DNA of 64,000 nucleotides from Polyangiaceae bacterium (lineage in GTDB: Bacteria > Myxococcota_A > Polyangia > Polyangiales > Polyangiaceae): NCBI GenBank assembly GCA_016933275.1, contig JAFGBI010000095.1:1-64000 (forward strand). Reading direction: 5' to 3'. The position numbers and the translations under genes are program-made. The notes under the pieces are model-generated. The model was not told where the DNA came from, made no database searches, and saw nothing but the letters and a program-made list of their open reading frames with translations. Below are positions 1 through 59,663 of this stretch, in pieces. Numbering within the stretch: the stretch's first letter is position 1; the number at the start of each line of letters is the position of its first letter.

Positions 1-103
1 AGGCGAGGACGCGTTTCCAGCGCTGCCTCTGGAGAGGTCTGCTGCCGGTTCGGTGCTCTAGGTTGTTGATTTGACGCAGCAATCAACGTGATTGCTGCTC
101 TAG
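1..103 (+). mobile_element. R1 repeat (MITE-like), copy A, cut by window edge
   Basis: This is the right-hand part of a repeat, here called R1, that recurs at nine other places in the window. Full copies are about 160 bp and run from CTAG to CTAG. They have terminal inverted repeats: the left end reads CTAGAGCACCGATCAGG and the reverse complement of the right end reads CTAGAGCAGCAATCAGG. Inside are a 12-bp hairpin (GGAAACGCGTCC and its complement), an internal inverted copy of the left end (CGGTGCTCTAG), and a right-end hairpin (GCAGCAATCA with TGATTGCTGC). The CTAG at 100-103 supplies the stop codon of the next minus-strand gene. By comparison with copy B, about 57 bases lie outside the window. 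Confidence 0.85.
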
Positions 104-9218: not shown

Positions 9219-9264
9219 CGGGTGGTTGACTTGCCGCAGCGATCAACCTGACTGCTGCTCGAGA
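9219..9264 (+). mobile_element. R1 copy H, right-end fragment, overlapping the gmd 3' end
   Basis: About 46 bp matching only the R1 segment from the internal inverted end to the right terminus, with GCAGCGATCAACCTGACTGC in place of the consensus hairpin. It is diverged and the terminal CTAG has become TCGAG. It overlaps the last codons of gmd, so that protein ends LEQQSG encoded by the repeat. Its sequence (GTTGACT, GCGATCAACC) resembles copy I at 59404, suggesting an older subfamily. Confidence 0.7.
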
Positions 9265-13459: not shown

Positions 13460-13619
13460 CTAGAGCACCGATCAGGTTGCCGACCGCAACGGCAGTGCTG
13501 GAAACGCGTCCGTGCAAGGCGAGGACGCGTTTCCAGCGCTGCCTCTGGAGAGGTCTGCTGCCGGTTCGGTGCTCTAGGTTGTCGATTTGACGCAGCAATC
13601 AACCTGATTGCTGCTCTAG
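13460..13619 (+). mobile_element. R1 repeat (MITE-like), copy B, best complete copy
   Basis: Complete 160-bp R1 with CTAG at both ends. The terminal repeats match at 18 of the first 20 bases. A perfect 12-bp hairpin lies at 13500-13511/13523-13534, an internal inverted left end around 13566-13577, and a right-end hairpin at 13592-13614. It lies between convergent genes (DUF35 and a lipoprotein). CTAG boundaries fit insertion of a GAG...CTC element into CTAG with TA duplication, as IS630-type transposases do. It encodes no protein. Confidence 0.88.
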
Positions 13620-14201: not shown

Positions 14202-14460
14202 GCGCCCTGAAACGGACACCGGGGCGGGCGGTTAAGCCTCGCATCGATACTCGCTGCGCCTCGACGCCGAACGGGTTGACTCCGTATCATTCTGAACAGC
14301 GAATCGGTGTCAGCGTGGATCGTGCCTCGGGGGGCTCGGGTGGGGATGGGGCGTCGGTGCGCTCCGGTGTGCCCACAAGGCAGCGCCAGGTAGGAGACAG
14401 GTAGACTGGCTAGCGCGGGCCGGGCCCGCAACCCAAGCACGGCGCCGGATCGTGCCCGCG

Positions 14461-14616
14461 CTAGGTTTCTTCTTGGCGGGGGAGGCGAGCTCTCCCCCGC
14501 ATCGGCCACCCCACGCGGCCCCCCCGCCTCGCTGCTCGATGAGCGGTGGGCGCCTCCGGCGCCGAGCCACCGCGCCGCCGAAAGCCCGCGCGTGGCGCGC
14601 GGATCCTCCGACCCAG
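14461..14616 (-). repeat. R2 repeat, copy 1 (CTAG-bounded, three hairpins)
   Basis: Repeat of about 155 bp whose reverse complement matches 40027-40182: a GGATCCGCGCGCCAC block, a GGCGCCGGAGGCGCC hairpin, CGCTCATCGAGC, then GGCCGATGCGGGGGAG and a C-rich complement. It starts with CTAGGTT and ends at CCAG, shared with R1 copy C. The two R2 copies lie in opposite orientations relative to their R1 neighbour. No coding potential seen. The rest of the gap, 14202-14460, holds nothing I can support. Confidence 0.75.
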
Positions 14617-14772
14617 AGCAGCAGTCGGGTTGATTGCTGCGTCAAATCGACAACCTAGAGCACCGAACCGGCAGCAGACCTCGCCCGAGGCGCGGTTGGA
14701 GACGAACCCTCGCTGGGCATGGGTACGTCTCCAGCGGCGCAGTTGCTGTTGGCATCCTGATCGGCGCACTGG
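14613..14772 (-). mobile_element. R1 repeat (MITE-like), copy C, diverged
   Basis: Full-length (160 bp) but diverged R1 in reverse orientation. The central hairpin is GGAGACG (14698-14704) with CGTCTCC (14726-14732). Compared with copy B both arms changed together, so pairing is kept. The left-end CTAG has decayed to CTGG and the right-end one to CCAG. It ends 5 bp from the 3' end of the minus-strand lipoprotein gene at 14777. Confidence 0.8.
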
Positions 14773-15490: not shown

Positions 15491-16639
15491 ATGGGTGCGC
15501 ATCCGCTTTCCTTCGCGAGCCTCGATTTCGCGACCACCCCTTTTCTGGTCATCTGGGAGGTGACGCGGGCCTGTGGGCTCGCCTGCCAGCACTGTCGCGC
15601 GGAGGCGATGGACACCCGAGACCCCCTCGAGCTTACCACCGAGGAGGGGAAGGAACTCCTCGGCCAGATCCACGAGCTTGGCACGCCGGTGTGCGTCCTG
15701 TCCGGGGGTGACCCCCTCGAGCGTTCGGATCTGGCGGAGCTCGTGCGTCACGGCAAGTCCGTTGGCCTTCGGATGGCCACCATTCCGGCGGCGACGCCGA
15801 GGCTGACCCGCGAACGCCTGGTGGAGCTCGTTGCCGCGGGGCTCGATCAGGTCGCCTTCTCGCTCGACGGGTCCACCGCAGAGCGTCACGATGGGTTCCG
15901 GCAGGTCCCCGGGACCTTCGATCGTACTATCGAGGCCGTGGGGTTCGCGCACGAGATCGGGATTCCGCTCCAGATCAACACCACGTTCGCCGCCCACAAC
16001 TACGACGACGTCGACCGGATGACCGAGCTCGTCGAATCGCTCCGGGTGGTGTTCTGGGAGATCTTCTCGCTGGTGCCGGTGGGGCGCGGGACGGTGCTCC
16101 GCCCGATGAGCGCGGTCGAGCACGAGGCGCTCTTCGCCAAGCTCTACGCGACGAGCATGAGGGCAGGCTTCATCGTCAAGGTCACGGAGGCGCCCCACTA
16201 CCGCCGCTACGTGCTCGCCCAACGGGACCGCGGCGGCGGCTCCCGGCCGGGTGGAGGACACCCCGCCGGTGGCGAGCGCTCGGGCTCGGCGATCCCGGCT
16301 CAGCTCTCACGCGAGCTCTCTACTCACGAGTCGTTCGGCGCGCGCGCCAAGGGGATCAATTCCGGCAAGGGCTTCTGTTTCGTGTCCCATCTCGGGGAGG
16401 TGTTTCCGTCCGGCTTCTTTCCCGTGCCCGTGGGGAGCATCCGCGAGCGACCCCTGGCCGAGCTATACCGTGATACGGACCTGATGCGCGCACTGCGCGA
16501 CCCGTCGCGTCTAGCGGGTCGTTGCGGCCGCTGCGAGTATGCCGACGTGTGCGGTGGCTCTCGGGCCCGCGCCTATGCCGTGCATGGCGATTGGTTCGCG
16601 GAGGACCCCGCGTGCCTGTACGAGCCGCCGCGCCGTTAG
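15491..16639 (+). CDS. radical SAM/SPASM protein, AhbD/NirJ-like
   Basis: A 382-residue radical SAM enzyme. The [4Fe-4S]-SAM motif is C28-xxx-C32-xx-C35 in EVTRACGLACQHCRAEA, followed by VCVLSGGDPLERSDL and VAFSLDGSTAERHDGFR. The C-terminal SPASM region has GKGFCFVSHLGEVFPSGFFP and CGRCEYADVCGGSRARAY with a final Cys, to bind auxiliary clusters. This layout is shared by heme-pathway decarboxylases (AhbD, NirJ) and some peptide-maturing enzymes. No precursor peptide or heme genes lie beside it, so the substrate is unknown. Its TAG stop lies within TTAG, the decayed left boundary of R1 copy D. Confidence 0.85.
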   Translation: MGAHPLSFASLDFATTPFLVIWEVTRACGLACQHCRAEAMDTRDPLELTTEEGKELLGQIHELGTPVCVLSGGDPLERSDLAELVRHGKSVGLRMATIPAATPRLTRERLVELVAAGLDQVAFSLDGSTAERHDGFRQVPGTFDRTIEAVGFAHEIGIPLQINTTFAAHNYDDVDRMTELVESLRVVFWEIFSLVPVGRGTVLRPMSAVEHEALFAKLYATSMRAGFIVKVTEAPHYRRYVLAQRDRGGGSRPGGGHPAGGERSGSAIPAQLSRELSTHESFGARAKGINSGKGFCFVSHLGEVFPSGFFPVPVGSIRERPLAELYRDTDLMRALRDPSRLAGRCGRCEYADVCGGSRARAYAVHGDWFAEDPACLYEPPRR

Positions 16640-16690
16640 AGCACCGATCCGGTTGCCAATGGCAGCGGCGCCGCTGGAAGCCCATCCATG
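16636..16690 (+). mobile_element. R1 copy D, left-half fragment
   Basis: About 55 bp matching the left third of R1 (TAGAGCACCGATCCGGTTGCC onward through the hairpin's left arm, decayed to GGAAGCCCATCC). The right part is missing. The left boundary TTAG overlaps the stop codon of the radical SAM gene. Confidence 0.65.
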
Positions 16691-24970: not shown

Positions 24971-25129
24971 CTCGAGCACCGGTCAGGTTGCCCACAGCAA
25001 CGGCGCCGCTGGAAACGTACCCTGCCCGACGAGGGCACGTTTCCAACGGCGCCTCGGACGAGTTCTGCTGCCGGTTCGGTGCTCTAGGTTGTTGATTTGA
25101 CGCAGCAATCAACCTGATTGCTGCTCTAG
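24971..25129 (+). mobile_element. R1 repeat (MITE-like), copy E
   Basis: Complete R1 (159 bp). The left CTAG has become CTCG; the right CTAG is intact. The hairpin is GGAAACGTACCC (25011-25022) with GGGCACGTTTCC (25033-25044): relative to copy B, stem positions 8 and 10 changed on both arms so that pairing is kept. It lies between the convergent DUF4126 and ABC-F genes. Confidence 0.88.
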
Positions 25130-28355: not shown

Positions 28356-28515
28356 CTAGAGCAGCAATCGGGTTGATTGCTGCGTCAAATCAGCGACCTA
28401 GAGCACCGAACCGGCAGCAGACGTGACCAGAGGCAGCGCGGGAAACGCGTCCTCGCCTCGTATGGACGCGTTTTCAGCGCTGCCGTTGCTGTTGGCAACC
28501 CGATCGGTGCTCCAG
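28356..28515 (-). mobile_element. R1 repeat (MITE-like), copy F
   Basis: Complete 160-bp R1 in reverse orientation. Right-end CTAG at 28356-28359; the left end has decayed to CCAG at 28515. Hairpin GGAAACGCGTCC with GGACGCGTTTTC (one G-T wobble). It lies 55 bp past the pfp stop, between pfp and fba, both on the plus strand. Confidence 0.88.
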
Positions 28516-30309: not shown

Positions 30310-30353
30310 GCGCGGCAGCGCCGTCGGTGCTGGCAAGTGGATCAGTGCTCTAG
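30310..30353 (-). mobile_element. R1 copy J, left-end fragment
   Basis: About 44 bp ending GATCAGTGCTCTAG, matching the R1 left third in reverse orientation (consensus GATCGGTGCTCTAG). The rest of the element is absent. It sits in the 456-bp gap between fba and pgk, which otherwise shows only the fba-proximal hairpin. Confidence 0.55.
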
Positions 30354-32771: not shown

Positions 32772-34262
32772 TCAACGTGACGGGTTTGCCCGCCCGCGGC
32801 GGCGGAGCATCACCGTTAGCCCTGCCAAGAGCAGCGCCGCCAGGCTTCCCCGGTGCTGGTGATCGCTGCCGCCAGCGACACGGCAGCTGCACCCTTCATC
32901 CGTCGGTTCGTCGTCACCCGTGCCCAAGCTGCCCCCGGTACCGGGGTCCGTGATGGTGGCTCCGTAGCCACCGGTTCCCGTACCCCCGCTCGAGGCGCCA
33001 CCGGTCAGCGCGCCACCCGAGGTGGTCAATCCGCCGGTGCTACCGCCGGTGGATCGGCCACCCGTCGTACTCAAGCCGCCGGTCGAGGTGCTACCCGTGC
33101 CGCCAGTCGGGCTGATACCGCCGGTTGGGGTGCCACCCGTGCCGCCAGTTGGGCCGACACCGCCGGTCGAAATGCCACCCGTGCCCCCGGTCGGGCCCAG
33201 GCCACCGGTTGGACGGCCACCCGTCGGGCCAACGCCGCCGGTCGGCGAAACGCCGCCGGTGGGCGGGGCTCCCCCCGTGACGATGCCACCCGAAGTCGAC
33301 ACCCCACCCGTCGGTGCACCGCCCGCCATCTCACCACCGCTCTCCGTGCCGCCGGACTCCGCCCCGCCGGTTCCGCCCGCCCCGCCCGTGCCGGGCTCCG
33401 GGTCGCGGTCGAGGCCGAAGAAGCGAACGACATCGGGCCACAGCGACGGCTGCACCGAAGTCAGATCATGCGGCTTGCCCTGCCCGATGTTCACCTCCAA
33501 CACGACGTCCCCTCCGTCCTCGTACGAGGTTCGTTCCCAGCCGCTGAGACCGGCCCCTTCGGTCCCTCCGCTCACGCCCAGCACGTTGGTCCACTGCAAT
33601 ACCTCTGCGGCAAGGTTCGAGTAGTTGAGCGTGGTGTCGCTGGTGCCGTGCCAGAGCTGGACTCGGGGCCAGGGCCCGCTGTAGTTGCCAGAGGCATTGC
33701 GCACGATGTCGCCCCATTGCTGGGCGCTGTTGTTGGGTGGATTCTGACCACACGCGCCGCATTCGGTCCCTCCGCTCCAGAACCCGGCGGGCACCCCAGC
33801 CAGCACCGAACCGCCGGCGAACACGTCTGGGTACGAAGCCATCAGCGCATTGGTCATGCACGCGCCCGACGACGCTCCTGCAGCGAAGACCCTGCTTGGG
33901 TCGGCGTCGTGTTGCTCGAGCACGTACTCGACCATTTGCACGATGGTCGCCCTCTCGCCGTTGCGCCCGGGCGCAGCATCGAAGCAGTTGCCCGCGGAAT
34001 CCGGGGTGACGATGAGGAAGCCGTATTGGTCGGCCAGCGACTGGAACCATCCATGGGCGGCTCCAGAGTTCCCGCTGCAGTAGTGGATCGCGACCACGAT
34101 CCCCGGTGATGGGTCGGGGTTGGTCGGCGTGTAAAGGTCCATCCCGAGCCCGCTACCGCCGTAGCTTACGCCGTTTTGCCACGCGGCGAACGCCGACTGT
34201 GAAGCGAAGAACGTAACGGCGAGCGGAACCGCAATTGAAGACCGATGTGAGATTCTATTCAT
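32772..34262 (-). CDS. secreted PHB-depolymerase/CE1-like esterase with MYXO-CTERM-like tail
   Basis: A 496-residue exported alpha/beta-hydrolase. Signal peptide to ~residue 26 (AVTFFASQSAFAA). The catalytic domain spans ~28-300: oxyanion region VVAIHYCSGNSGAAHGW, nucleophile Ser131 in AAGASSGACM, Asp in WHGTSDTTLNYS and His in GQGKPHDL. This pattern is the PHB-depolymerase/feruloyl-esterase (CE1) group. A ~150-residue Gly-Thr-Pro repeat (PTGG units) follows. The tail GCSCR, a hydrophobic LAALLLAGLTVML and RRRGR match a MYXO-CTERM sorting signal, so it is probably surface-anchored. Ester substrate unknown. The start ATG has AGGA about 14 bases upstream. Confidence 0.88.
   Translation of the reverse strand: MNRISHRSSIAVPLAVTFFASQSAFAAWQNGVSYGGSGLGMDLYTPTNPDPSPGIVVAIHYCSGNSGAAHGWFQSLADQYGFLIVTPDSAGNCFDAAPGRNGERATIVQMVEYVLEQHDADPSRVFAAGASSGACMTNALMASYPDVFAGGSVLAGVPAGFWSGGTECGACGQNPPNNSAQQWGDIVRNASGNYSGPWPRVQLWHGTSDTTLNYSNLAAEVLQWTNVLGVSGGTEGAGLSGWERTSYEDGGDVVLEVNIGQGKPHDLTSVQPSLWPDVVRFFGLDRDPEPGTGGAGGTGGAESGGTESGGEMAGGAPTGGVSTSGGIVTGGAPPTGGVSPTGGVGPTGGRPTGGLGPTGGTGGISTGGVGPTGGTGGTPTGGISPTGGTGSTSTGGLSTTGGRSTGGSTGGLTTSGGALTGGASSGGTGTGGYGATITDPGTGGSLGTGDDEPTDEGCSCRVAGGSDHQHRGSLAALLLAGLTVMLRRRGRANPSR
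33000..33390 (-). repeat. low-complexity PTGG-coding repeat inside the esterase gene
   Basis: Tandem short units encoding (P/S)TGG(V/I/L) within the linker of the esterase, of variable length with imperfect periodicity. It acts as a flexible stalk between the catalytic domain and the C-terminal sorting tail. The repetitive DNA may vary in length between strains. Confidence 0.75.
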
Positions 34263-40026: not shown

Positions 40027-40182
40027 CTAGGTTCGAGGATCCGCGCGCCACCGGCGGATCCTCGGAGCGCAGCAGATCGGCGCCGGAGGCGCCCGTCGCT
40101 CATCGAGCGGCGAGGAGGGGGAGGCTGCGTGTCGCGGCCGATGCGGGGGAGGGCTCGCCTCCCCCGCGAAAAAGCAACCTAG
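40027..40182 (+). repeat. R2 repeat, copy 2 (CTAG-bounded, three hairpins)
   Basis: A 156-bp element from CTAGGTT to AACCTAG with three perfect hairpins: GAGGATCCGC (40035-40044) with GCGGATCCTC (40054-40063); GGCGCC-GGA-GGCGCC (40079-40093); and GCGGGGGAGG (40143-40152) with CCTCCCCCGC (40158-40167). It matches 14461-14616 in reverse. Its right CTAG is also the right boundary of R1 copy G. Starts 4 bp after the activator's stop. Possibly a second MITE or BIME-like family. Confidence 0.8.
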
Positions 40183-40334
40183 GGCAGCAATCAGGTTGAT
40201 TGCTGCGTCAAATCAACAACCCAAAGGAACCGACAGCAGACCCCTTCAGAGGCAGCACTGGAAACGCGTCCTTGCCTCGCACGGACGCGTTTCCAGCGCT
40301 GCCGTTGCTGTCGGCAACCCGATCGGTGTGCTAG
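40179..40334 (-). mobile_element. R1 repeat (MITE-like), copy G
   Basis: Complete R1 (156 bp) in reverse orientation with CTAG at both ends, a perfect GGAAACGCGTCC/GGACGCGTTTCC hairpin, and a decayed internal end. It abuts R2 copy 2 and shares a CTAG with it. It lies between the convergent sigma-54 activator and mini-Fis genes. Confidence 0.87.
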
Positions 40335-40462
40335 CGCGGGCACGATCCGCCGCCGCGCGTGGGTTTCCGGCCTGTCCCGCGCCAGGGAGGCAATGACTCG
40401 ACGCCGACCGTTGCGCGCGGGGGGCCTGCACAGCCCTGGTCGTCGTTCGGGGAGTAAGGAAG

Positions 40463-59058: not shown

Positions 59059-59663
59059 GGGTACGGTCCTACCACGTCCCGCAGCAGGTCCTGGGGTGTG
59101 GTTCGACGAGGCGGGGGGGACGGCGCCCGGCACCGCCCCGGTGCGGGTCGGGGTGGGCGGCCGCAGTGCGGGTCGGGGTCAAGCCAGGGGGTGGCATGGT
59201 CGTGGATGCGGAGATCGGGCCGGGCGGCGCCGTGGTTGCAGCCCCGGGAGCCGGAACCGAGAAACGCCATCAGCGAACAGCGGTCAGCGATCAGCCGTCG
59301 GGCAAAGACCGCGAACCCTGGACGCCGGCGGCTGATTCTTGAGCTCAGTGAAAACGTTGCGAAAAATCCGGCACCGTGTGGGGCCCGGCGGACGCGGGTC
59401 CCCAGGTCGTTGACTCGTCGAAGCGATCAACCTGACGGCTGCGCCCGGAGTCCCGGGCCCCGAGATGCCCGCCCAAGGAGCCCCGAGCGCCAAGAACGCA
59501 TCGAAGGACCGTGGAGACACCCTTGGCGAACGCCCGCGACCCGCGCGGGAGCGTTGCCCGAGCGCTGCCTTGACCGCCGAAGGGGCGGCCCGTATGTTGG
59601 TCTTCTCTATGAGAAAGTGCGCCATCGCTCCCAGCGCGGTGGGGATCCATTCGGGGCTAGGGC
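59059..59663. other. 605-bp divergent intergenic region with R1 remnant
   Basis: Divergent between the small lipoprotein (minus) and the kinase (plus). It contains R1 copy I at 59404-59446. Open frames on both strands are Arg/Pro-rich, apart from a minus frame (59284-59625) that runs through the R1 remnant and has no recognisable domain. No promoter assigned. Confidence 0.4.
59404..59446 (+). mobile_element. R1 copy I, right-end fragment
   Basis: About 43 bp matching the R1 right end (GTTGACTCGTCGAAGCGATC then AACCTGACGGCTGC). Diverged; boundary CTAGs lost. It shares GTTGACT and GCGATCAACCTGAC with copy H at 9219. Confidence 0.55.

What the first reader, a model, noticed from the sequence alone, without database searches (positions are those of the whole stretch)
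13460..13619. R1: a ~160-bp CTAG-bounded MITE-like family, ten copies in 64 kb
Copies at 1-103, 13460-13619, 14613-14772, 24971-25129, 28356-28515 and 40179-40334 are full length (the first cut by the window edge). Fragments lie at 9219-9264, 16636-16690, 30310-30353 and 59404-59446. Full copies have ~20-bp terminal inverted repeats (18/20 in copy B), CTAG at both boundaries and no ORF. The boundaries fit insertion of a GAG...CTC element into CTAG with TA duplication, known for IS630-type transposition. I know of no description of this family.
Basis: partly seen in the sequence, partly recalled or inferred. Interest (0 to 1): 0.8.

Follow-up and report, generated by a model that had tools for sequence, protein, structure and literature searches.

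The report
Myxobacterial CTAG-bounded hairpin mini-transposon family
The 160-base repeat is a miniature, gene-less jumping element present in hundreds of copies in this myxobacterial genome; relatives with the same ends run through much of the Myxococcota, and its two-hairpin shape was kept across five genera while the hairpin sequences were rewritten, but the enzyme that moves it was not found.

Summary
R1 is a precise 160-bp unit: conservation falls to background outside C1 and G160. There are about 390 copies of its right end in the 8.25-Mb host genome, against 0 for the reversed control. The host belongs to the same family as MAGs titled Polyangiaceae. R1 is a MITE, non-coding and strongly intergenic (6 of 142 copies inside predicted genes, 78% of DNA coding). 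Within the genome, empty sites carry one CTAG and filled sites carry CTAG-R1-CTAG: 7 filled against 9 empty at one site of repeat R2. An R1 inside an IS630 pseudogene restores the reading frame only when one CTAG is kept. This fits TA duplication at CTAG, but cannot tell TA from CTAG duplication, and no orthologous empty site was available. R1 is a composite: a 118-bp foldback plus a 42-bp foldback, punctuated by three CTAGs. This layout is kept in five genera while the stems are rewritten with compensatory changes. Individual copies decay without compensation, so the fold matters to the mobile lineage and not to resident copies. The 20-bp end recurs in ~160-170-bp MITEs of many Myxococcota, including cultured Enhygromyxa. 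No autonomous element was found; IS630-type mobilisation is plausible but unproven.

The parts
13460..13619 (+). R1 full copy (reference): 118-bp foldback A (CTAG to CTAG) followed by 42-bp foldback B ending in CTAG
13460..13479 (+). left terminal inverted repeat CTAGAGCACCGATCAGGTTG
   Evidence: same end found across Myxococcota
13600..13619 (-). right terminal inverted repeat (reads CTAGAGCAGCAATCAGGTTG on the minus strand; 18/20 to the left one)
13460..13577 (+). module A: near-perfect 118-bp hairpin bounded by CTAG on both sides
   Evidence: (z about -10 and -11 for the whole element)
13578..13619 (+). module B: spacer plus hairpin GCAGCAATCA/TGATTGCTGC and terminal CTCTAG; repeated in tandem elsewhere
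1..103 (+). R1 copy, cut by contig start
14613..14772 (-). R1 copy (older subfamily), abutting the end of repeat R2
24971..25129 (+). R1 copy (older subfamily)
28356..28515 (-). R1 copy
40179..40334 (-). R1 copy inserted at the internal CTAG of an R2 repeat (filled site)
14461..14464 (.). the matching EMPTY site: single CTAG inside the R2 repeat at about 14410-14613
40027..40385 (-). R2 repeat (CTAG-bounded) split by the R1 copy at 40179-40334
9219..9264 (+). R1 fragment, module B
   Evidence: E 1.1e-6
16636..16690 (+). R1 fragment, left end
   Evidence: E 5e-8
59404..59446 (+). R1 fragment, module B, decayed
   Evidence: E 3.5e-5
30310..30353 (+). claimed fragment; not recovered by the profile
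   Evidence: absent

Best explanation
R1 is a non-autonomous transposable element (MITE) of Myxococcota. A transposase supplied in trans recognises the ~20-bp ends (TAGAGCRCCGATCAGKTTG), cuts the element out and pastes it into the TA of a CTAG, duplicating the TA, as IS630/Tc1-mariner enzymes do. Shown here: the mobile unit, the target sequence, the single-CTAG empty sites, the intergenic bias and the shared ends. Inferred: cut-and-paste by an IS630-type DDE enzyme. R1 itself probably arose by fusion of two CTAG-bounded foldback elements (a 118-bp palindrome A and a 42-bp palindrome B) that now move as one 160-bp unit, sometimes with a third element (X) at the inner CTAG. Lineages that kept a self-complementary body amplified best, so the fold is conserved between subfamilies and genera although resident copies drift freely.
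For: Exact boundaries with background flanks. About 390 right ends genome-wide. Target CTAG while CTAG is 6-fold depleted. Seven elements of 156-338 bp sit between the same two R2 flanks that enclose exactly four bases (CTAG or a decayed form) in nine empty copies, plus a frame-restoring empty site in an IS630 pseudogene whose residues line up with the G009 IS630. Intergenic: 6 of 142 copies in CDS. Bodies of different length (A+B, A+X+B) share the same ends, as expected of trans-mobilised elements. The same ends occur in ~160-170-bp elements with other bodies in Enhygromyxa and several other Myxococcota genomes. IS630 elements in these genomes can be read with the same boundary form C-TA-[G...C]-TA-G (the search required the TAs, so this is weak). 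Compensatory changes: 43 double-change cells against 15 in shuffles and 0-3 in slid controls; no clear excess within resident copies of one subfamily (7 against 3.8 expected, shuffles reach 9). IS630 prefers TA in CTAG (Tenzen and Ohtsubo 1991, in the reference list of PMC2170065).
Against: No transposase gene between R1 ends was found. IS630 genes are only remnants in the host and none were found in several R1-type genomes such as G002 and Enhygromyxa SWB007. TA and CTAG duplication cannot be separated. A 4-bp CTAG duplication would point instead to another DDE family such as IS5 (family knowledge, not tested). Classical DDE transposition does not require a folded body.
Confidence: 0.68

Rival explanations
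1. R1 is moved by a different DDE transposase (for example IS5 or IS701 type) that duplicates all four bases of CTAG.
For: Nearly all R1 target sites seen are CTAG, so a 4-bp duplication fits the empty sites equally well. Multi-copy elements with R1-type ends and a possible ORF start ~115 bp in (ATG...RWSP) run off contig ends in two MAGs (L228/L245, L229/L240); their coding part is unread.
Against: Copies with ATAG or GTAG on the left still have CTAG on the right, where a 4-bp duplication predicts the same four bases on both sides (few cases, mutation possible). The X family reads CTAG...TTAG. None of the PF01609 or PF13340 loci of three genomes carries R1 ends as its own termini.
Confidence: 0.15
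2. R1 is moved through its folded single strand by a hairpin-recognising HUH enzyme (IS200/IS605 or RAYT-like); CTAG is the cleavage tetranucleotide and no true duplication occurs.
For: Strong fold of both ends with stems replaced by compensatory change across genera. A single CTAG at the empty site is also what such insertion 3' of a CTAG would leave. Tandem B modules resemble BIMEs.
Against: Only one Y1_Tnp gene in the host, without R1 nearby, and none in G009, which has abundant copies. True inverted terminal repeats, with some changes shared by both ends within a genus, are the mark of a DDE element bound at both ends.
Confidence: 0.12
3. R1 is a functional repeat (RNA or regulatory/terminator element) kept for the host, not mainly a mobile element.
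For: Long stable hairpin, enrichment between convergent genes (40 of 113 intergenic copies against 203 of 927 gaps), covariation between genera.
Against: No Rfam match. Resident copies decay without pairing constraint, flanks are unrelated, insertions lie inside other repeats and a pseudogene, and both orientations occur.
Confidence: 0.04

Closest known systems
RUP (pneumococcus) and Correia/NEMIS (Neisseria), TA-flanked bacterial MITEs
   Same: ~100-200 bp, no transposase gene, terminal inverted repeats, TA at the ends, long stem-loop; RUP is thought to be moved by IS630-Spn1 and also inserts into IS elements (PMC2229807)
   Different: R1 targets CTAG almost exclusively, is built of two separate foldbacks with an internal CTAG, and has no identified partner IS
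CIR repeats (Caulobacter and Brucella)
   Same: two hairpin arms joined by a linker, with structural features conserved between distant hosts (PMC2229807)
   Different: R1 has CTAG punctuation, ~20-bp terminal inverted repeats and a target duplication; a GANTC motif was not looked for
IS630 / ISY100 (IS630/Tc1/mariner family)
   Same: insertion at TA, preferentially in CTAG for IS630, with TA duplicated (PMC2170065 and its references)
   Different: R1 has no transposase, and no IS630 found here carries R1 ends
REP/BIME with RAYT
   Same: short hairpins, extragenic, tandem and composite arrangements (own knowledge of REPs)
   Different: R1 has true inverted ends and a duplicated target; no RAYT-like partner was seen

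Membership tests
MITE | short non-coding element with precise ends in many copies | tested here: met
   160 bp, ~390 copies, sharp boundaries
MITE | terminal inverted repeats | tested here: met
   18/20 in R1; 17-21 of 22 in most relatives, 14-15 in G002 and G028
MITE | target duplication shown by empty sites | tested here: met
   9 empty against 7 filled R2 sites, and an IS630 pseudogene frame test; paralogous, not orthologous
MITE | ends shared with an autonomous element | tested here: inconclusive
   candidates with R1 ends run off contig ends in two MAGs; none complete
IS630/Tc1-mariner-derived | duplication of TA only | tested here: inconclusive
   target is nearly always CTAG; xTAG...CTAG cases lean to TA
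IS630/Tc1-mariner-derived | IS630 transposase with the same ends | tested here: not met
   none in host, G009, G027 or 14 further genomes, in the contigs held
IS200/IS605 or RAYT/REP | Y1 transposase partner in R1-bearing genomes | tested here: not met
   absent in G009, single and unlinked in host
IS200/IS605 or RAYT/REP | no inverted terminal repeats | tested here: not met
   inverted ends present in all five genera, weakest in G002 and G028
known RNA family | match to an Rfam model | tested here: not met
   no match in the window

The most novel reading that the evidence does not exclude
R1 belongs to a class of mini-elements whose mobility depends on the folded body: transposition selects for paired stems, so two separate hairpins are rewritten by compensatory change from genus to genus while inserted copies are free to decay. 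This would be transposition that reads structure as well as end sequence, possibly through a single-stranded or cruciform intermediate.
Probability: 0.22. Interest if true: 0.72.

Novelty: new variant of a known kind. Interest (0 to 1): 0.45.

Why it matters
It extends IS630-like MITEs to a wide spread of Myxococcota, where a literature search found no description (open-licence papers only). It gives an unusually clear natural test of whether a MITE body must fold in order to move: compensatory evolution between lineages, neutral decay within them. With 1.3% of the sampled DNA in R1 and many contigs broken inside it, the family also shapes and fragments these genomes.

Tried and rejected
RNA family: Rfam search empty. 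RAYT/REP: Y1_Tnp single and unlinked in the host, absent in G009. IS630 partner: only remnants in the host; in the loci checked none has R1 ends. IS4/IS5: R1-like copies lie beside two such loci (L124, L139) as separate insertions. End pairs 450-5000 bp apart in 2.1 Mb: two, a 461-bp composite of known repeats and a 2.3-kb chance pair around ordinary DNA. A perfect TIR at C406 proved to be a ~33-bp TIR-TIR foldback. Viral contigs: four hits, all look like chance. Plasmids and phages: none. Arm-to-arm conversion as the cause of covariation: little support, since private double changes in one subfamily are near chance. The cmsearch alignment A2 mixes both strands of the palindrome and was not used for counts.

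Full report
What was checked. The six long copies and three of the four fragments are present as described; the one at 30310-30353 is not recovered. The window is the first 64 kb of contig 219 (88.7 kb) of an 8.25-Mb, 464-contig assembly. Contigs of R1-bearing relatives in the same family match in length records titled Polyangiaceae (JAFGIS = G027, JAHBVY = G028, JABFRG = G029), so the host is a relative of these.

Size of the family. A 28-bp motif of the right end has 389 matches (up to 3 mismatches) in the genome and none when read backwards. In 2.14 Mb that I could lay out, a profile HMM finds 226 R1 pieces, 100 of them full length, covering 1.28% of the DNA. No two of 81 copies of exactly 160 bp are identical; median pairwise identity is 89% and the closest are 1.9% from the consensus. 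Very young copies would be hidden, because many contigs begin or end inside R1.

Boundaries. In 45 aligned copies with flanks the information per column jumps from about 0.2 to 1.6 bits at C1 and falls from 1.85 to 0.45 after G160. The unit is therefore the 160 bp including CTAG at both ends. CTAG occurs 569 times in the repeat-masked sample where base composition predicts 3,482. The T and A of the terminal CTAGs decay faster than most of the element.

Empty sites. Repeat R2 holds an internal CTAG. Nine real R2 copies, one of them at 14461-14464 of the window, read ...CCCGCG-[CTAG or a decayed form of it]-GTTTCTTCTTGG...; seven others, including window 40179-40334, hold an R1 or A-X-B element between two (sometimes decayed) CTAGs at exactly that place (the other pairs in that list are chance pattern matches). 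In locus L110 an R1 plus an extra B module lies in an IS630 pseudogene. Removing it while keeping one CTAG gives a continuous frame, GIQAR*RRCADIPTGPGQPWRREFECVRHGTV, the same length as the matching stretch, QALERAQPVLPMDLGQPERQTHNYLRHGTV from QA onward, of the G009 IS630. Keeping none or two shifts the frame. So the target held one CTAG and the element brought a short duplication. TA and CTAG duplication give the same result at a CTAG. Copies with a changed outer base (ATAG or GTAG left, CTAG right) favour TA but are few.

Anatomy. Bases 1-118 form a near-perfect hairpin and 132-154 a second one; folding energy is 10-11 standard deviations below shuffles. A third CTAG lies at 115-118. B modules can be tandem, and another CTAG-seeking repeat, X (CTAGTCCCTTGGCGG...GCCGGGTTAG, 89 hits), sits at the inner CTAG in A-X-B forms of roughly 310-340 bp. 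A is thus a complete foldback with ends of its own and B another, and the pair now moves as one. The fusion origin is inference.

Relatives. BLAST finds R1-like elements in two other genera of the family. A covariance model built from three genera finds solid matches in G028 (24) and G002 (6), where the order CTAG, long hairpin, CTAG or a decayed form of it, spacer, hairpin, CTAG is kept while the stems are new. In the three-genus alignment 96% of cells pair and 43 cells carry changes on both sides, against 15.2 in shuffles and 0-3 when the partner column is slid. In 63 copies of one G000 subfamily, single changes keep a pair as often as the mutation spectrum predicts (0.336 against 0.324), and double compensated changes are 7 against 3.8 expected. 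I read this as constraint on the propagating lineage and little or none on inserted copies.

Wider spread. Many are complete elements of 160-171 bp with unrelated or only distantly related bodies; minimal TIR-TIR forms of about 33-55 bp also occur. Enhygromyxa SWB007 has 62 end matches, G135 68, G134 41, with none for the reversed control in these three.

Transposase. PF13358 gives three remnants in the host and single remnants or unrelated genes in G009 and G027. Fourteen further genomes gave nine loci; several show CTA...TAG-flanked inverted ends, none of them R1 ends. PF01609 and PF13340 loci do not have R1 ends as termini. Y1_Tnp is absent from G009. In two MAGs, elements with R1-type ends run off contigs about 126 or 139 bp in, near the assembly k-mer length suggested by the contig names of one of them, after a possible start codon. 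These are the best candidates for the autonomous partner and could not be read.

Verdict. A MITE: well supported. TA-type insertion at CTAG: supported, with one ambiguity. IS630 as the driver: plausible, untested by a partner. Composite, fold-conserved architecture and wide spread in Myxococcota: new here as far as the open-licence literature searched shows. Caulobacter CIRs are the nearest described two-arm repeats.

Noticed in passing
window 14410-14613 and 40027-40385; 24 hits in 2.14 Mb: R2, another CTAG-bounded repeat (CTAGCGCGGGC...GCCCGCGCTAG plus a G+C-rich tail), whose internal CTAG is a landing site for R1.
   Followed up: partly
G000 contigs, e.g. L075 (C233:28832-28999), L112: X, a third CTAG-associated repeat (CTAGTCCCTTGGCGG...GGCTCCGCCGGGTTAG, ~160 bp, 89 hits in 2.14 Mb), often in tandem, with TTAG at the right junction.
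   Followed up: partly
whole sample of G000: CTAG is about six-fold under-represented, and the TA of terminal CTAGs in R1 mutates faster than most of the element.
   Followed up: no
L184:12961-12993 (G000 C406), L225, L222, L251: Minimal 33-55-bp elements made of little more than the two inverted ends, as if internally deleted.
   Followed up: no
L228/L245/L275/L287 (G130) and L229/L240/L268/L280/L292 (G131): Multi-copy elements with R1-type ends that run off contigs after a possible ATG...RWSP start: candidate autonomous partner.
   Followed up: partly
window 33057-33224: Four degenerate 42-bp tandem repeats (69-76% identity) in G+C-rich DNA, possibly a repetitive coding region.
   Followed up: no
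Myxococcota genomes G132, G134, G135, G136, G139, G141: MITEs with the same ends but different bodies mostly measure about 160-170 bp, which suggests a size constraint on mobility.
   Followed up: partly
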